Assembly: GCF_002980555.1 (NCBI RefSeq)
Contig: NZ_PVBT01000001.1
Span: forward strand, 744,001 to 808,000
Source: Phyllobacterium myrsinacearum
Lineage (GTDB): Bacteria; Pseudomonadota; Alphaproteobacteria; Rhizobiales; Rhizobiaceae
DNA length: 64,000 bases
Direction: 5' to 3'
Shown piece by piece: positions 43,687 through 50,020 of this stretch. A program made the translations under genes and the position numbers. How positions within the stretch are numbered: the stretch's first letter is position 1; each line of letters starts with the position of its first letter. Under the pieces are notes generated by a model. That model was not told where the DNA came from and searched no databases. It saw nothing but the letters and a program-made list of their open reading frames with translations.

Positions 43687-43700
43687 CAGCAGGTCGGGCG

Positions 43701-44015
43701 TTAGCTCTTGCCGCCGTTCTTCTTGCATTCGGCGCGGAACTTGTGGCGTTCCTTGCCATGCAGGCCCTTGGCATCAGCCTGGGCCGAGCATGCCTTGGAG
43801 ATGGCTGTTTTGGCCGGGGTGGTGGCTGTGGCAGCCGGAGCAGCGGCGGGTTTCTTGGCCATGGAATTGGCGGCCGGCTTTGTCGTTGTGGTCGGTGCGG
43901 CCGGTGCGGTTGTGGCCGCTGGCGCTGTCGTTGCGGGGGCTGCAGTCTGTGCCATCGCGCTTGTGCCGACAAAGGCAAGGATCGCGGTGGCGGTAAGGGT
44001 GGCAACTAGTCTCAT
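43701..44015 (-). CDS. PsiF-like exported protein
   Basis: The 104-residue protein has a signal peptide (MRLVATLTATAILAFVGTSAMAQ), a low-complexity Ala/Thr/Pro linker of about 50 residues and a single C-terminal PsiF repeat: ISKACSAQADAKGLHGKERHKF with the second Cys in RAECKK. PsiF proteins are small, phosphate-starvation-linked secreted proteins of unknown function that usually carry two repeats; only one is seen here. AAAGGAAACG precedes the ATG. The protein shares its layout (signal, Ala-rich linker, Cys-framed motif) with the three-repeat protein at 54.4 kb. Confidence 0.85.
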   Translation of the reverse strand: MRLVATLTATAILAFVGTSAMAQTAAPATTAPAATTAPAAPTTTTKPAANSMAKKPAAAPAATATTPAKTAISKACSAQADAKGLHGKERHKFRAECKKNGGKS

Positions 44016-44308
44016 GGTCGTTTCCTTTGAGTTACAAACCCGTTTTGTAGCGCTTTGTGACACCAGGTTCTCTCGCGCTACGGTTGCACCTGAGCACTGC
44101 TTGCATTTCGCCAAGCCCTTGCAAATCAATGAGATGCGCGGTGCTATACGCCATGCCAACATTGCTCGAGTCACAGATTATTGATCGACCGTGTTTTCTT
44201 TGTGTGCATCAACATTAATTTTTTCCATGAAACGGCCCTGTTTTGCAGCTGCTTGACGCTCGCGCATCACGGCTCTATATCGGCGCTTCAACCGGGAGCT
44301 GCACTTCC
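44016..44308 (+). other. Gap with upstream control region of the CmlA-like gene
   Basis: About 290 bases without a gene between the PsiF-like start and the leader peptide. It holds the PsiF gene promoter on one side and, near its right end, the strong promoter at 44252-44280. The middle (44190-44235) is A/T-rich. I see no further ordered structure. Confidence 0.5.
44252..44280 (+). promoter_or_regulatory. Consensus rhizobial sigma-70 promoter for the leader/CmlA-like unit
   Basis: CTTGAC (44252-44257) and CTATAT (44275-44280) are exactly 17 bases apart, an exact match to the rhizobial housekeeping consensus CTTGAC-N17-CTATAT. Transcription should start near 44287, only about 20 bases before the leader peptide ATG, with GGGAG at 44294-44298 as its ribosome binding site. 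Confidence 0.8.
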
Positions 44309-44338
44309 ATGAAAGCCACCACGCTCGCAACCCGCTAG
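44309..44338 (+). CDS. Nine-residue leader peptide (MKATTLATR) before the CmlA-like gene
   Basis: The open frame ATG-AAA-GCC-ACC-ACG-CTC-GCA-ACC-CGC-TAG starts ten bases after GGGAG and about 22 bases after the predicted transcription start. It is rich in Ala and Thr. Chloramphenicol is known to stall ribosomes where Ala, Ser or Thr is the second-last residue of the growing chain, and inducible cmlA and cat genes use leader peptides of about this size. A hairpin begins one base position after the stop codon. I propose a stalling leader controlling the pump; the leader is too short for standard gene calling. Confidence 0.6.
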   Translation: MKATTLATR

Positions 44339-44371
44339 GCCGCAACAACCGTTTTCAACCGTTGTTGCGGC
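44339..44371 (+). promoter_or_regulatory. Attenuator hairpin directly after the leader peptide
   Basis: GCCGCAACAAC (44339-44349) and GTTGTTGCGGC (44361-44371) form a perfect 11-base stem with loop CGTTTTCAACC. The left arm starts immediately after the leader TAG, so a ribosome stalled on the leader would cover it and open the stem. The right arm could then pair elsewhere, for example GCGGC with GCCGC near 44411. There is no T-run, so simple termination is unlikely; the way it affects the gene is inferred. Confidence 0.6.
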
Positions 44372-44451
44372 ATTCAAAGCTCTCATCATGCTTTTTGCGT
44401 TGGGATCAATGATCGCCGCCGGACTTTCCTGTTCGTGTGGGATTCTTTGTT

Positions 44452-45657
44452 ATGCTTTACCCCAAAAATTGGACTTATTCGCTGCCGGCAGCCTTGCTGC
44501 TGATGGCTCCCTTTGACCTGCTCGCTTCGCTGGGCATGGACATCTATCTGCCTGTTGTCGTCCGCATGCCTGCGGTTCTCCAAACCACACCGGCGACGAT
44601 CCAGCTGACACTCAGCCTGTATATGATCGTTCTTGGCTGCGGGCAGCTCCTGTTCGGCCCGCTGGCCGACCGCATCGGACGCAGGCCCGTCCTGCTCGGC
44701 GGCGCACTTCTGTTCACCTTTGCCTCCGCCGGATTGGCCATGACCAGTTCGGCCAGCGTTTTCATAGCGCTGCGCGTTGTCCAGTCGGCAGGTGGCGCGG
44801 CGGCCCTGGTGGCAACCTTTGCCACTGTCCGCGATGTTTATGCGGCGCGGCCGGAAGGCGCCATCATCTATGGCCTGTTCGATTCCATGCTGGCCTTCGT
44901 TCCGGCTTTTGCACCGATGATCGGCGCATTGGTCGATCATATATTCGGCTGGCGTGCCGTTTTCTGGTTGCTTGCCGGGCTTGCTGTGTTGTCCGGGCTG
45001 CATGCGTTTCTGCGCTGGCCCGAAACATGTCCGCTACAGACACATCCGGCAACACTGCGAGGTAGTTTTGGCAGGGTGTTTTCCAGCGTCTCGTTCTGGA
45101 CCTATACAATGGGTTTCAGCACCGCTATGGGAACGTTCTTCACCTATTTCTCGACGGCGCCGCGCATTCTCATGCAGGCGCTTGGCCTGTCTTCGACCAT
45201 GTTCAGCCTCGTCTTTGCAACCGTTGCCCTTGTCATGATCGTGTGCAGCCGCTTTGGCGGTGTGTTCGTCCGGCGTTGGGGGCTAAAGGGATGCCTGATC
45301 AGGGGGATGGCCTTGTTCCTGGCCGGCGCGGTGGTGCTGATGGCGGGACAGATGGTCCTGCCCATCTCCATTGTCACGTTCATGGCGCCGATGTGGATCA
45401 TGGCTTGCGCCATATCATTGACATCTGCCGTTGCGGCAAACGGGGCTTTGCGCGACTTTGGTGATATCGCGGGAACGGCGACAGCCATCTATTATTTCAT
45501 CCAAAGTGTGATTGTCGGGGCTGCCGGGACGCTGGCCGTGGTCCTGCTCCCCGAGGCGAGCTTTTGGCCCGTTGCGGTGTTTGCCGCCGTGGCGGCCGTT
45601 GTCACACTGGGTTTGGCAGGCCTGTGCGGACCTGATGAAAAGCATGTAACCCTTTAA
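44452..45657 (+). CDS. CmlA/FloR-like chloramphenicol efflux MFS transporter
   Basis: The 401-residue protein has twelve probable membrane segments and follows CmlA closely from the start: YSLPAALLLMAPFDLLASLG, MDIYLPVVVRMP, TIQLTLSLYMIVLGCGQLLF, then motif A GPLADRIGRRPVLLGG and the blocks LVATFATVRDVYA and WRAVFWLLAG. CmlA/FloR pumps expel chloramphenicol and florfenicol in exchange for protons. The ATG at 44452 aligns with the CmlA start; a GTG at 44437 would add five residues. Base composition resembles neighbours and no integron parts are present, so it seems a resident chromosomal gene. Drug specificity is inferred. Confidence 0.88.
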   Translation: MLYPKNWTYSLPAALLLMAPFDLLASLGMDIYLPVVVRMPAVLQTTPATIQLTLSLYMIVLGCGQLLFGPLADRIGRRPVLLGGALLFTFASAGLAMTSSASVFIALRVVQSAGGAAALVATFATVRDVYAARPEGAIIYGLFDSMLAFVPAFAPMIGALVDHIFGWRAVFWLLAGLAVLSGLHAFLRWPETCPLQTHPATLRGSFGRVFSSVSFWTYTMGFSTAMGTFFTYFSTAPRILMQALGLSSTMFSLVFATVALVMIVCSRFGGVFVRRWGLKGCLIRGMALFLAGAVVLMAGQMVLPISIVTFMAPMWIMACAISLTSAVAANGALRDFGDIAGTATAIYYFIQSVIVGAAGTLAVVLLPEASFWPVAVFAAVAAVVTLGLAGLCGPDEKHVTL

Positions 45658-45672
45658 TTACACTGCATCATT

Positions 45673-45705
45673 CGCGATCCCGGCCAGATTATCGCCGGGG
45701 TCGCG
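45673..45705. terminator. Two-way terminator between the CmlA-like and AhpD-like genes
   Basis: CGCGATCCCGGC (45673-45684) and GCCGGGGTCGCG (45694-45705) form a 12-base stem with one G-T pair around a 9-base loop, in the 63-base convergent gap. There is no long T-run. Confidence 0.65.
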
Positions 45706-45720
45706 GATATGGCAATCGGC

Positions 45721-46242
45721 TCATGCCCTGTAGGAATGCAGTTCCGGATCAAGCTCCACCTCAACCACGTTGGTGAAGACCGCCGTGGCGATCATGATAC
45801 CGGCAAAGGCGACAAGGTTGACCAGCGTCGGCTCGTCATAACGTGCAGCCAGTTTGTTCCACAACCGCTCGGGCACCGCATTGGCATCGGCAACGATGGC
45901 CTTGCCAAAATCGATCAGCACCGTTTCATCCGCATCCGGGACGATGGTCTCGGGCTGCAGCCCGGAGTCGATCAGGGCGCGGCGGAAAAAGGTGACGGGC
46001 ACATCCGCATGGCTTGCCTGCGCGATGGCGAGCGACAGAAGCCAGATGGCGCGATCCGGCAGGGCCGGGCGCAACAGATCCCGCAAGGTAAACCATTCCG
46101 CATAGATGCGGTGGGCGACAGGTGAATGCAGCATGATGCGTTTCATGTTGGTCATGCGGCCGCGCAATTGCAGCTCCCGGTCGTGCTCGGCGCGAACATC
46201 CGGCGCAGCGTTTTCATAAACAATCGGGGAAATGCGGCTCAT
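45721..46242 (-). CDS. AhpD/carboxymuconolactone decarboxylase-like protein without the CxxC site
   Basis: The 173-residue protein has the AhpD-like helical fold (RGRMTNMKRIMLHSPVAHRIYAEWF, then LLSLAIAQASHADVPVTFFRRAL). In active AhpD-type peroxidases this second block reads CxYCxxxH; here no cysteine is present anywhere in the protein, so the thiol peroxidase reaction is not possible. It may be a decarboxylase-like or purely structural relative. The gene stands alone and is convergent with the CmlA-like gene. Family membership is by pattern, function unknown. Confidence 0.8.
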   Translation of the reverse strand: MSRISPIVYENAAPDVRAEHDRELQLRGRMTNMKRIMLHSPVAHRIYAEWFTLRDLLRPALPDRAIWLLSLAIAQASHADVPVTFFRRALIDSGLQPETIVPDADETVLIDFGKAIVADANAVPERLWNKLAARYDEPTLVNLVAFAGIMIATAVFTNVVEVELDPELHSYRA

Positions 46243-46546
46243 GGGAAATATCCGTCTGTGACAGGTTTGCGGGGGGTACGGGGCAGGGTGTTCAAAGGCT
46301 TATATTTTCTGGCGGCGGCGCGCCATGGAAAACCCGATGGCAGATTCATTTCGCGGCAAAACCCGGATGTATTCCACATTCTGGAAAATTCCAGCTCCGG
46401 TTGCGGCAATTGTTGAAAGGTTTTTCGCCTGCTGCTCTGCACAAAAGATAGTCATCCCTCGCTCAAACCGTGTGCATTCGCGAATATCCGGGATGAAACA
46501 AGACGTTTCTCTTTTCGCTATTCACACTGCCTACGGGGGCCAGCAC
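46243..46546. other. Upstream region of metQ, no clear riboswitch
   Basis: About 300 bases divergent between the AhpD-like gene and metQ. An inverted pair CATCCC/GGGATG flanks a C/G-rich stretch near 46454-46496, but the conserved SAM-II core (GATAAA and GCTAAA near an SD) is not found. The region probably carries both promoters. GGGGG before the metQ ATG is its ribosome binding site. Confidence 0.4.
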
Positions 46547-47392
46547 ATGACAAAAACCATAGAAAATCTCGAAAACAACGGGAAAATCACGCGGCGCGCC
46601 GGCCTGTTTGCGCTGATGGCTTCGGCTATCGCCATTGCCAGCTTCACCGCGCCGCAACCGTCGCAGGCGGCTGACAAGGCCATCAAGGTCGGCATCATCA
46701 GTGGTGAGGACGAAGATGTCTGGAAAGTCGTGACGGCGGAAGCCGCCAAGAACGGCCTGAAAATCCAGACGGTTGTTTTCAACGATTACACTCAGCCGAA
46801 CGAAGCGCTGGAACGTGGCGATCTCGACGCCAATGCATTCCAGCACAAGCCCTATCTCGACAACCAGATCAAGACGCAGGGCTACCACATTGTTCCGGTC
46901 GGCTATACCGGCGTCTGGCCCATCGGCCTCTATTCCAAGAAGTTCAGCAAAATCGCTGACCTGCCGCAAGGCGCCGTGGTCGGCGTTCCCAACGATCCGT
47001 CGAATGAAGGCCGGGCGCTGCGGGTGCTGGAAGATCAGGGCGTCATCAAGCTCAAGCCCGGCACGGGCATTCTCGCCACCATCGCCGACATTGCCGACAA
47101 CCCGAAGAAGGTGAAAATCAAGGAACTCGATGCCGGTATTGTCGGGCGTTCGGTTGAAGATCTCGATGCAGCCGTGGTCAACACGGATTGGGCGCTGAAG
47201 AGCGGCCTGACACCGGAAAACCGCATCGCCCAGGAAAAGATCGCCGACAATCCTTACCGCAATTTCATTGCCGTGAAGGCCGGGCAGGAGAAGGAGCCAT
47301 GGGTGAAAACCCTCGTGTCCTCCTACCAGAACGACAAGGTCAAGGCGGAATTCGACAAGGTGTACAAGGGAACAGGTATCAGCGCTTACTGA
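46547..47392 (+). CDS. metQ: Methionine ABC transporter substrate-binding protein
   Basis: The 281-residue protein belongs to the NlpA/MetQ family: KVGIISGEDEDVWKVVTAEA, VVFNDYTQPNEALERGDLDANAFQHKPYLDNQ and GYTGVWPIGLYSKK, with the residues that hold D- or L-methionine. The signal region (ITRRAGLFALMASAIAIASF, cleavage near SQA|AD) has twin arginines and no lipobox Cys, so unlike E. coli MetQ it is a soluble periplasmic protein, perhaps Tat-exported. It precedes metN and metI with a 117-base gap that contains a hairpin. Confidence 0.94.
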   Translation: MTKTIENLENNGKITRRAGLFALMASAIAIASFTAPQPSQAADKAIKVGIISGEDEDVWKVVTAEAAKNGLKIQTVVFNDYTQPNEALERGDLDANAFQHKPYLDNQIKTQGYHIVPVGYTGVWPIGLYSKKFSKIADLPQGAVVGVPNDPSNEGRALRVLEDQGVIKLKPGTGILATIADIADNPKKVKIKELDAGIVGRSVEDLDAAVVNTDWALKSGLTPENRIAQEKIADNPYRNFIAVKAGQEKEPWVKTLVSSYQNDKVKAEFDKVYKGTGISAY

Positions 47393-47473
47393 TAACCGGT
47401 TGATCTAAAAGCAATCACGACAAAGCGGTTCGCAGCATGGATATATGCCGCGGGCCGCTTTCCCGGTTGATGC

Positions 47474-47492
47474 GGATGCCGTTGCGGCATCC
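47474..47492 (+). promoter_or_regulatory. Intercistronic hairpin before metN
   Basis: GGATGCC (47474-47480) and GGCATCC (47486-47492) pair around GTTGC, just before the metN ribosome binding site (GAGG near 47500). A wider pair AAAGCGG/CCGCTTT surrounds the gap. It may protect the metQ message and give more binding protein than transporter. Confidence 0.5.
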
Positions 47493-47509
47493 CTCCAAGA
47501 GGAAAACAC

Positions 47510-48592
47510 ATGAATTCGCATGTCTCTGTTCCCGGCCAGACGGGTGCAATCATAGCCGGTACGCCGCTTGCCGACGCTGTCGTGCGGCTTGAGAATGTCA
47601 AACGGCATTTTGGGGAAACGCCGGCTTTGGACGGTGTGTCCCTGACTGTCCGCAAGGGGGAAATTCTTGGCATTATCGGCCGCAGCGGCGCGGGAAAGTC
47701 GACGCTGATCCGCTGCCTCAACGGGCTGGAGCGGCCGGAATCCGGGGCCATTTTCGTCGAAGGCAGGCAGATCACCGGGCTTAGCGAGCGGGAGCTGCAG
47801 CCCTTCCGCCGCCGTATCGGCATGATCTTCCAGCACTTCAACCTCTTGTCGGCCAAGACCGTGGAAGAGAATGTGGCGCTACCGCTGAAGATCGAGGGCC
47901 GTCCGAGGGCTGAACGGCTCCAACGCGCGCGCGAACTGCTCGATCTTGTCGGCCTTTCCGACAAGGCAGGGGCCTATCCGTCCTCCCTGTCCGGCGGGCA
48001 AAAGCAGCGGGTCGGCATTGCGCGGGCACTGGCGGCACGCCCGGCCTTGCTGCTTTCGGACGAAGCGACATCGGCACTCGATCCCGAAACAACCCGCTCC
48101 ATCCTCGCGCTGCTGAAGGACATCAATCGCAAGCTTGGCCTCACCATCCTGCTGATCACCCATGAGATGGAAGTGGTCCGCTCCATCGGCGACCGCGTGG
48201 CAGTGATCGATGCAGGGAAAATCGTCGAGGAGGGTCCCGTCTGGTCGGTGTTCGCCGATCCGCAGACGGATATCACCAAAAGCCTGCTGGCGGGTATTCG
48301 CCCGCAGCTTCCGGCGCATATCGCCGATGCCCTATCGGCGGAACCGGGCGGCGAGGCTGTGCTGGGTGTCGATCTCGCTGGTGCTGCAGCGCAGGGCACC
48401 TTGCTGGCCGAGCTGCCACGGCCGTTCCGCCTGCTGCATGGCGGTGTCGATCATGTGCAGGACCAGGCGGTTGCCCGGCTTTATCTTGCGGTTCCGGCTG
48501 TGCCTGCCGGCGCTGTCCAGACATTCATTCAATTTCTCGAGGCCCGCTCGGCCCGTGTGGAGGTGCTCGGCTATGTCACCGGTCATGCTTGA
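47510..48592 (+). CDS. metN: Methionine ABC transporter ATP-binding protein
   Basis: The 360-residue protein is a MetN ATPase. Walker A is GRSGAGKST (57-65), the signature is LSGGQKQRVGIARAL, Walker B LLLSDEATSALD and the H-loop LLITHEME. The last about 75 residues (RPFRLLHGGVDHVQDQAVAR and on) form the NIL domain that binds methionine and inhibits transport. It is followed by metI with a 20-base overlap. The N-terminus has about 20 residues more than usual before VRLENVKRHF; the ATG at 47510 has AGAGG upstream. Confidence 0.96.
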   Translation: MNSHVSVPGQTGAIIAGTPLADAVVRLENVKRHFGETPALDGVSLTVRKGEILGIIGRSGAGKSTLIRCLNGLERPESGAIFVEGRQITGLSERELQPFRRRIGMIFQHFNLLSAKTVEENVALPLKIEGRPRAERLQRARELLDLVGLSDKAGAYPSSLSGGQKQRVGIARALAARPALLLSDEATSALDPETTRSILALLKDINRKLGLTILLITHEMEVVRSIGDRVAVIDAGKIVEEGPVWSVFADPQTDITKSLLAGIRPQLPAHIADALSAEPGGEAVLGVDLAGAAAQGTLLAELPRPFRLLHGGVDHVQDQAVARLYLAVPAVPAGAVQTFIQFLEARSARVEVLGYVTGHA

Positions 48593-49229
48593 TCTTCTCG
48601 TTCAATCCATCTGGGAAACGCTTGTCATGACCGGGGCCTCCGGTCTGATCTCGCTGGCCGCGGGATTGCCGCTTGGCCTTGCCCTGGTGGCAACGGACCG
48701 TGGCGGCATTGCGCCCAATCCCTGGGTCAACAGTGTGCTTGGTGCCGTCATCAACGCCTTCCGATCCGTGCCGTTCATTATCCTGCTGGTGGCGCTGATC
48801 CCGGTAACGCGGCTCATCGTCGGAACATCCATCGGCACATGGGCGGCCATTGTGCCGCTGTCCATCGGCGCGACGCCCTATTATGCCCGCATTGCCGAGG
48901 TGTCGCTGCGCGAAGTCGATCGCGGATTGATCGAGGCCGCACGCGCCATGGGCGGCAACCGCTGGACGATTATCCGCGAAGTGCTGGTGCCCGAAGCGCT
49001 GCCGGGCATTATCGCCGGTTTCACGGTGACGCTCGTCACTCTGATCGGTGCATCAGCCATGGCCGGTGCCATCGGCGCGGGCGGCCTCGGCGATCTGGCC
49101 ATCCGCTACGGCTACCAGCGGTTTGAAACCTCGATCATGATTGCCGTGGTGATCGTGCTCATCGTTCTCGTCTGCGGCATCCAGTGGGTTGGCGACAGGC
49201 TGGTCAAGCGGCTCGACCACCGGATTTAG
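48573..49229 (+). CDS. metI: Methionine ABC transporter permease
   Basis: The 218-residue membrane protein is MetI: five membrane segments with the EAA-loop segment EVDRGLIEAARAMGGNRWTII, which contacts MetN. The start at 48573 (MSPVMLDLLVQS) is chosen because GGAGGT lies eight bases before it, inside metN; ATG at 48585 is the alternative. The gene overlaps metN by 20 bases. Length equals the family norm of about 217. It ends 38 bases from the convergent osmoprotectant operon. Confidence 0.95.
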   Translation: MSPVMLDLLVQSIWETLVMTGASGLISLAAGLPLGLALVATDRGGIAPNPWVNSVLGAVINAFRSVPFIILLVALIPVTRLIVGTSIGTWAAIVPLSIGATPYYARIAEVSLREVDRGLIEAARAMGGNRWTIIREVLVPEALPGIIAGFTVTLVTLIGASAMAGAIGAGGLGDLAIRYGYQRFETSIMIAVVIVLIVLVCGIQWVGDRLVKRLDHRI

Positions 49230-49267
49230 ACACGATGTAATGAATGAAAAAAGCGCAGGGGAAACGG

Positions 49268-50020
49268 TCAGCCTTGCTGGAGAAGGCCCATGCGCCGCGA
49301 AATGAAACGTTCCATCGCCGACAATCCGTCATAGATCATGACGGCGAGCACTCCGACGATCAGACCGCCCTGCAGCACAAAGGAGAGGTTGTTGGATTGC
49401 AGCCCGGCAATGATCACTTCGCCCAGCGTTTTGGCGGCAACCGTGGAGCCGATGGTGGCCGTTGCCAGATTGATCGTCACCGAGAGGCGGATGCCGGCAA
49501 GAATGACCGGCATCGCCAGCGGCAGCTCCACTTTGACAAGCCGCTGCCAGCCGGTCATGCCGACGCCGCGCGCCGCATCGGTGACGGTCGGCGGCAGGGT
49601 GGTCAGGCCGGTCAGCGCGTTTTCGAAGATGGGCAGCAATCCGTAGAGAAACAGCGCGATCAGCGTGGGTTTTTCACCGAAGCCGACGGCTGGCACCGCC
49701 AAAGCGAGCACGGCGACGGGCGGAAATGTCTGGCCGATATTCACCAGACTGCGGGACAGTGGCAGAAATTCCGCGCCGAAGGGGCGCGTGACCAGAATGG
49801 CCAGCGCGATGGCCACGATGGTCGCGCCCGCCGTCGCAATGGCAACGGTGCGCAGGTGAAGCAGTGTCAGGTTGAGCAGGCTGCCCTGATTATAGATCAC
49901 CGGAGCATTGTTCTGCGTCAGCGGGCGAAACACCGGCTCGAACCATTCCGGCCGTGCGAGAAACACGACCAGCAGCACCAGGATGCCGATGCGCACTATG
50001 GCGGGCAGGCGCAGTTTCAT
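49268..50020 (-). CDS. Osmoprotectant ABC transporter permease, YehW type
   Basis: The 250-residue membrane protein matches the smaller permease of the OsmF/YehZ system (E. coli YehW has 243). About five membrane segments are present, with the EAA-like loop LPPTVTDAARGVGMTGWQRL that contacts the ATPase. It is the last of four genes in the order binding protein, large permease, ATPase, small permease, the same set as YehZYXW. Neighbouring genes overlap by ATGA. The family imports glycine betaine and related solutes; this transporter's solute is not certain. Confidence 0.93.
   Translation of the reverse strand: MKLRLPAIVRIGILVLLVVFLARPEWFEPVFRPLTQNNAPVIYNQGSLLNLTLLHLRTVAIATAGATIVAIALAILVTRPFGAEFLPLSRSLVNIGQTFPPVAVLALAVPAVGFGEKPTLIALFLYGLLPIFENALTGLTTLPPTVTDAARGVGMTGWQRLVKVELPLAMPVILAGIRLSVTINLATATIGSTVAAKTLGEVIIAGLQSNNLSFVLQGGLIVGVLAVMIYDGLSAMERFISRRMGLLQQG

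What the first reader, a model, noticed from the sequence alone, without database searches (positions are those of the whole stretch)
44252..44460. Leader-peptide attenuator in front of a chromosomal CmlA/FloR-like pump
An exact CTTGAC-N17-CTATAT promoter is followed by a 9-codon peptide with a good ribosome binding site (MKATTLATR, rich in Ala and Thr), then at once by a perfect 11-base hairpin (44339-44371), and then by a pump close to CmlA. Chloramphenicol stalls ribosomes after Ala, Ser or Thr, and resistance genes cmlA and cat use such leaders. The same design in a chromosomal alphaproteobacterial gene with a different peptide and a hairpin 80 bases before the gene would be a new example, perhaps with another mechanism.
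Basis: partly seen in the sequence, partly recalled or inferred. Interest (0 to 1): 0.75.

Follow-up and report, generated by a model that had tools for sequence, protein, structure and literature searches.

The report
Drug-sensing switch before a pump
A soil bacterium's chloramphenicol-type pump gene is preceded by a tiny peptide and an RNA switch that most likely turn the pump on when the drug stalls ribosomes; it belongs to the known cmlA/floR switch, and its relatives suggest how a hairpin far from the gene can control it.

Summary
In detail: promoter, 9-codon leader (MKATTLATR), abutting hairpin and pump are at the stated coordinates. It is not a new design. The genome groups with Phyllobacterium, the pump is CmlA/FloR family, and all 166 relatives read (chosen by pump similarity, near-copies included) have a hairpin behind a short leader, plasmid cmlA and floR among them; the stop codon abuts it in 157. 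The hairpin's distance from the gene (80 nt) is typical (median 77). A covariance model built without the window's clade finds the window element at 55.7 bits. The alignment supports four segments: 1:2 plus 3:4 (hiding the pump's ribosome site), or 2:3 when a stalled ribosome covers segment 1. The residue third from the leader's end is Ala, Ser or Thr in 64 of 64 distinct peptides: the phenicol-stalling residues, at the place of the published CmlA arrest. This suggests an answer to a question two floR papers left open: how a hairpin far from the ribosome site could act. The window's variant is a leader ending LATR instead of NADK. Induction is untested; in the full-length window RNA the switch needs folding during transcription, and calculation does not show the ribosome site freed.

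The parts
44252..44280 (+). promoter, CTTGAC-N17-CTATAT
   Evidence: same spacing and nearly the same hexamers in 6 of 6 Phyllobacterium loci of this type
44294..44298 (+). GGGAG, likely ribosome binding site of the leader, 10 nt before its ATG
   Evidence: read; not the same in sister loci
44309..44338 (+). leader ORF MKATTLATR, stop TAG; Ala7 is the expected stall residue, Thr8 the expected P-site codon, Arg9 the A-site codon
   Evidence: A/S/T at position -3 in 64 of 64 distinct peptides
44339..44349 (+). segment 1, GCCGCAACAAC, pairs with segment 2 (no drug)
44361..44376 (+). segment 2, GTTGTTGCGGC plus flank ATTCA; pairs with segment 1 (off) or segment 3 (on)
44410..44424 (+). segment 3, TGATCGCCGCCGGAC; pairs with segment 4 (off) or segment 2 (on)
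44431..44443 (+). segment 4, GTTCGTGTGGGAT, contains the pump's likely ribosome binding site GTGGGA 44437-44442
44452..45657 (+). CmlA/FloR-family phenicol efflux MFS pump, 401 aa

Best explanation
This is a chromosomal member of the CmlA/FloR ribosome-stalling translational attenuator. Without drug, ribosomes finish MKATTLATR and leave; segment 1 pairs with 2, so segment 3 pairs with 4 and hides the pump's ribosome binding site. When a phenicol-type drug halts a ribosome with Thr8 in the P site and Ala7 as the penultimate residue, its leading edge covers about seven bases of segment 1. Segment 2 then captures segment 3 as it is transcribed, segment 4 is released and the pump is translated. 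Shown by computation: the anatomy, its conservation and the covariation. Inferred: the stall, the inducer, the footprint (standard toeprint offset, recalled) and the switch in the cell.
For: All 166 of 166 loci read (near-copies and some repeated genomes included) have a hairpin behind a short leader; 157 with the stop codon abutting it, 9 with the stop displaced but an [AS]x[RK] triplet 2-3 nt before the hairpin. Position -3 of the leader is A 43, S 20, T 1 in 64 distinct peptides; on the pump tree it changes at least 11 times and never leaves A/S/T, while each of positions -1, -2 and -4 to -7 does. Chloramphenicol stalling prefers Ala, then Ser/Thr, as penultimate residue (PMC8987054, passages), and the CmlA leader stalls with codon 8 in P and 9 in A (PMC11190716, passages). 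Covariation on 52 representatives: 1:2+3:4 95.5% of cells paired (shuffled mean 93.7), score 0.152 against 0.126; 2:3 89.8% (86.8), 0.121 against 0.077; for these measures 0 of 500 shuffles as high. Folding before segment 4 exists: P(2:3) mean 0.02 free, 0.91 with the leader covered; window 0.00 to 0.99. Clade-left-out covariance model: 55.7 bits, E 2e-13 on the window; 0 of 19 paralogous pump loci given match at E 1.
Against: No expression data. In the full-length window RNA at equilibrium, covering the leader leaves 3:4 at 0.81 and 2:3 at 0.16, and the ribosome site goes only from 0.00 to 0.05 unpaired; in sisters L004 and L007 2:3 does form (0.98, 0.99) but the site then pairs with the start region instead (unpaired 0.01, 0.00). 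Only 28 of 52 representatives have 2:3 above 0.5 at equilibrium, and the site opens by more than 0.2 in 15 of 52 (by any amount in 44). The column-defined 3:4 core has probability 0.00 for cmlA1, cmlA8 and floR: in cmlA the site pairs with a nearby CCUU in both states, in floR with segment 3 at about 0.5 only. When spacer and segment 3 are shuffled, the freed segment 2 still pairs downstream at mean 0.71 against 0.98. For 2:3, the number of pairs with double changes is not above shuffles (122 of 500), and related sequences can exceed such shuffles without structure. The window lacks the K-x-A-D core. Ala at -3 is always codon GCA, so RNA pairing may contribute to its conservation.
Confidence: 0.75

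Rival explanations
1. Transcription attenuation: in this clade the 3:4 hairpin, followed by a T-rich stretch (GATTCTTTGTT in the window, GATTTTTGCT in L004 and L007), ends transcription just before the pump; stalling prevents it.
For: T count of the tail is 6 or more in all 3 Phyllobacterium representatives and in 3 of the other 49. floR mRNA rises with drug (reported in passages of PMC5890775 and PMC8256890). The calculations do not show the ribosome site freed in this clade, which would matter less for this rival.
Against: 0 terminator-like sites found in 43700-46000 (the scan found no bulged stems). A run of five T follows the stem in only 4 of 52 representatives, 2 of them Phyllobacterium, not in the window itself, and the stem holds the pump's ribosome site. 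More mRNA can also follow from translation protecting it.
Confidence: 0.15
2. The hairpin 44339-44371 is a DNA operator or an mRNA-stability element and the leader is not used.
For: It is a perfect inverted repeat, 80 bases from the gene.
Against: A/S/T at -3 in 64 of 64 peptides and the fixed leader-to-hairpin register; G-U pairs and compensating changes in 1:2 favour RNA. The six neighbouring genes tested for synteny include no obvious regulator (names recalled).
Confidence: 0.04
3. The same switch, but its natural inducer is another peptidyl-transferase ligand (an oxazolidinone-like or other soil compound), not chloramphenicol.
For: Linezolid shares the penultimate-Ala rule (PMC8987054, passages). 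The window's leader has T8 and R9 in place of D8 and K9.
Against: The pump family is phenicol-specific by name, and its mobile members are reported inducible by phenicols (passages).
Confidence: 0.2

Closest known systems
cmlA translational attenuator (Stokes and Hall 1991, known here through passages of PMC8876359 and PMC11190716)
   Same: 9-codon leader, stop codon directly against GCCGCAGCAAC...GTTGTTGCGGC, two alternative stems described, pump of the same family
   Different: leader MSTSKNADK against MKATTLATR; integron cassette against a chromosomal locus shared by Phyllobacterium species; ribosome site AAGGAG in a shifted stem against GTGGGA
floR putative attenuator (PMC5890775, PMC8256890, passages)
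   Same: 9-codon leader, 11-base repeats, hairpin distant from the ribosome site
   Different: leader MGNSKSADK; both papers find the hairpin does not overlap the ribosome site, a link that segments 3 and 4 could supply (in floR itself only weakly by calculation)
Gram-positive cat and ermC attenuators (recalled; general description in passages of PMC8876359)
   Same: drug-stalled leader peptide opens the ribosome site of the resistance gene
   Different: there the stem by the leader itself hides the ribosome site (recalled); here a second stem does

Membership tests
CmlA/FloR translational attenuator | short leader whose stop codon abuts the first stem | tested here: met
   44309-44338 and 44339-44371; 157 of 166 relatives read alike
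CmlA/FloR translational attenuator | sequence and structure homology of the element | tested here: met
   model R2, built from 36 sequences without L002, L004, L007 and L042: 55.7 bits, E 2e-13; 0 of the 19 paralogous loci given (of 21 held) match at E 1
CmlA/FloR translational attenuator | second stem hides the pump's ribosome site, with a competing pairing | tested here: met
   window P(3:4) 0.99 free, P(2:3) 0.99 when covered and segment 4 not yet made; alignment support (computation only)
CmlA/FloR translational attenuator | covering the leader frees the ribosome site | tested here: inconclusive
   window 0.00 to 0.05 unpaired at equilibrium, full length; depends on folding during transcription
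CmlA/FloR translational attenuator | Ala, Ser or Thr one residue before the P-site codon of the known arrest | tested here: met
   Ala7; 64 of 64 distinct peptides
CmlA/FloR translational attenuator | K-x-A-D core (KNAD) of the leader | tested here: not met
   window TLAT, other Phyllobacterium of this type KLAT. Not treated as defining here: position -2 is T, A or R in 12 of 64 distinct peptides
CmlA/FloR translational attenuator | induction by sub-inhibitory phenicol | not testable with these tools
   needs a reporter or toeprint
CmlA/FloR pump family (NF033134) | score above the curated cut-off | tested here: met
   565 against 450 bits
intrinsic-terminator transcription attenuator | stem followed by a T-run | tested here: inconclusive
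   0 sites by scan; 7 T of 11 after the bulged 3:4 stem, longest run 3
any Rfam family | match up to E 1 | tested here: not met
   0 matches in 43900-44700

The most novel reading that the evidence does not exclude
The element is an old chromosomal RNA sensor of alphaproteobacteria that reads the penultimate-residue rule of peptidyl-transferase drugs, from which the mobile cmlA and floR genes took their switch; the Phyllobacterium branch, with two successive stall residues (A7, T8) and a T-rich tail, has been retuned to another inducer or to joint control of transcription and translation.
Probability: 0.2. Interest if true: 0.7.

Novelty: new member of a known kind. Interest (0 to 1): 0.45.

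Why it matters
Two papers on floR note that its hairpin lies apart from the ribosome site, one of them that its role is therefore unclear (passages). The comparison across chromosomal relatives supplies a concrete four-segment model with covariation, a predicted stall codon and a predicted moment in transcription at which the choice is made, all directly testable. It also suggests that the drug-sensing switch of mobile phenicol pumps is inherited from chromosomal ones, and gives a natural series of 64 leader peptides in which the penultimate-residue rule can be read from evolution.

Tried and rejected
Rejected: a new design (same block before cmlA and floR); an Rfam family; use of the element before other genes. 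With model R1 the own genome has 1 match; 1 of 337 class genomes (the own one) and 21 of 398 phylum genomes (own included) have a match at E 0.001, under stricter filters. 14 places score 38 bits or more: the own one and 13 checked by blastx, and each precedes a CmlA/FloR pump (two of them the same pump; some are rows of the model or near-copies). Eight weaker places checked (L202-L209) do not; six further weak places (L211-L216) were not checked.

Dead ends and limits: the first upstream alignment used four minus-strand loci unturned and was redone. Of one search's loci only the nine best pumps were counted; the 21 other Bcr/CflA-type loci (L011-L031) were not, and 19 of them served as controls. 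Two of the loci without a leader (L119, L139) were my offset error at contig ends and were read again. One search parsed 150 of 166 loci: 6 were dropped by a script rule for the pump start and 10 because the strict leader pattern failed; their leaders, read, keep A or S in the same place. Four Pseudochrobactrum-type loci given to model R2 (L044, L118, L120, L122) do not match it. L198 and L199-L201, read after the count of 64, have T at -3. When partners are slid, percentage paired and covariation score fall sharply, but the number of pairs with double changes does not always (6 against 7 for 1:2+3:4, 4 against 4 for 2:3). The tree is a FastTree with 38 of 120 inner branches open. No structure prediction was made.

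Full report
What is there. The pump belongs to NCBIfam NF033134, CmlA/FloR family, at 565 bits against a cut-off of 450. The window lies in a 5.44-Mb genome. The nearest pump in a named record is that of Phyllobacterium calauticae (94% identical), then P. myrsinacearum (84%); the first lies on a contig of the same length (1,174,415) as G004, a genome called same genus, so the genus is Phyllobacterium by inference. The locus is shared: in L038-L041, from four Phyllobacterium genomes, a psiF-like gene lies before the pump (about 1.7 kb away in L041) and a carboxymuconolactone-type gene, metQ and metN after it (names recalled). Eight of 21 genomes of the genus and 76 of 394 of the family (26 of 109 genera) have a pump at E 1e-80 or better.

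Conservation. I read the region upstream of 166 pumps: the 9 best, 6 records of the plasmid collection picked by hand (cmlA1, cmlA8, three floR forms, Sinorhizobium meliloti pSymB), 80 from the genome collection, 26 and 45 fetched. They were chosen by pump similarity or name, not by their upstream regions; they include near-copies of mobile floR and a few genomes twice. In 157 a short ORF ends with a stop codon directly against a hairpin that begins GCCG[CT] and ends GCGGC (155; L128 with a GTG start; L139 after correction). In the other nine (L068 and eight Pseudochrobactrum-type loci) the stop codon has moved, but a triplet [AS]-x-[RK] stands 2-3 nt before the hairpin, close to its usual place. 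The distance from hairpin to pump start is 64-149 nt, median 77, in 148 loci: the window's 80 is ordinary.

The peptide. Among 64 distinct leaders (150 loci parsed) the third residue from the end is Ala in 43, Ser in 20 and Thr in 1. On a pump tree this position changes at least 11 times without leaving that set, whereas each neighbouring position from -1 to -7 leaves it. Chloramphenicol and linezolid arrest ribosomes best when the penultimate residue is Ala, less so Ser or Thr (PMC8987054, passages), and toeprints place the CmlA arrest with codon 8 in the P site and codon 9 in the A site (PMC11190716, passages), which makes residue 7 the penultimate one. The window keeps Ala7 and has T8-R9 where CmlA has D8-K9. 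A caution: Ala is always written GCA here (59 of 86 distinct leader DNA sequences), and in many relatives GCAGAC can pair with GTCTG behind the hairpin, so part of the conservation may be at the RNA level; the Ser and Thr replacements, and the window clade, where that pairing is lost, argue for the residue itself.

The RNA. On 52 representatives aligned without reference to structure, the pairings 1:2 and 3:4 hold in 95.5% of cells (shuffled mean 93.7, 0 of 500 as high), with 25 double-change cells against 9.7; 3:4 alone is 90.4% paired, with 5 of 9 pairs showing double changes. The competing pairing 2:3 holds in 89.8% (86.8; 0 of 500), with 15 double-change cells against 4.9, though the number of such pairs is not above shuffles (122 of 500). 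Percentage paired and covariation score fall sharply when partners are slid by 1-3 columns; the number of pairs with double changes does not always. In three rows the pair at columns 73:115 is A-U where 40 have U-A; the window is one of them. Segment 4 contains the pump's likely ribosome site.

The switch. With RNAfold, before segment 4 has been made, 2:3 has mean probability 0.02 when the leader is free and 0.91 when leader and seven bases of segment 1 are covered; it exceeds 0.5 in 0 and 49 of 52; in the window it goes from 0.00 to 0.99. At full length 2:3 exceeds 0.5 in 28 of 52, but the window largely stays in 3:4 (0.81), and its ribosome site goes only from 0.00 to 0.05 unpaired. In L004 and L007 2:3 does form, but the site then pairs with the start region. 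In cmlA1 and cmlA8 the site pairs with a nearby CCUU, in a register other than the family's 3:4, and stays largely so when the leader is covered (about 1.0 to 0.6 and 0.8); in floR it pairs with segment 3 at about 0.5, which is lost when 2:3 forms (0.96). The model therefore needs the choice to be made during transcription, as in other attenuators, and the opening of the ribosome site itself is not shown. A control with shuffled spacers shows that a freed segment 2 often finds some partner (0.71 against 0.98; 48 of 780 shuffles as high), so the alignment evidence weighs more than the folding.

Membership. A covariance model from 36 relatives without the window's clade finds the window element at 55.7 bits, E 2e-13, the Phyllobacterium sisters at 51-60 bits, and none of the 19 loci of other Bcr/CflA-type pumps given; it also misses four Pseudochrobactrum-type loci. 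A model of 45 sequences searched in 398 genomes of the phylum found 14 places at 38 bits or more, each before a CmlA/FloR pump. Rfam has no match for the region.

Known and new. The cmlA attenuator, with a 9-residue leader and two alternative stems, goes back to Stokes and Hall 1991 (passages of PMC8876359; the original was not read). For floR, PMC5890775 and PMC8256890 (passages) describe leader and hairpin and state that the stable hairpin does not overlap the ribosome site; the second adds that its part in induction is not clear. What is added here is a covarying second stem and a covarying alternative pairing that link hairpin and ribosome site across the family, the A/S/T rule across 64 peptides, and a chromosomal, syntenic member with a divergent leader. 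I therefore file the window element as a new member of a known kind.

Noticed in passing
L082 (Comamonas testosteroni) and L194: A cmlA-type leader (MSTSKNADK) is joined to the floR2-type hairpin and pump: apparent recombination inside the upstream region.
   Followed up: no
L044, L118-L120, L122-L125 (Pseudochrobactrum by L044; the others by likeness): The leader's stop codon is lost from its place beside the hairpin and lies inside or beyond segment 1, while SATR or SSTR keeps its place; the stop seems dispensable.
   Followed up: partly
pump tree of 123 rows: Mobile floR forms lie inside a set of chromosomal, mostly alphaproteobacterial pumps; cmlA sits on a long branch near the window's clade, placement unsure.
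   Followed up: partly
L197/L210 and L105, L140, L172: A stretch of several dozen bases lies between segments 2 and 3 with the outer segments kept, which suggests that the spacer length is free.
   Followed up: no
L199-L201 and L198: Distant members with leaders ending T-V-R and T-D-R, outside the counted 64, also obey the A/S/T rule.
   Followed up: partly
window 46325-50020: metQ and metN-type methionine transporter genes follow the pump; a separate convergent ABC permease-type gene lies at 49268-50020 (names by recall).
   Followed up: no
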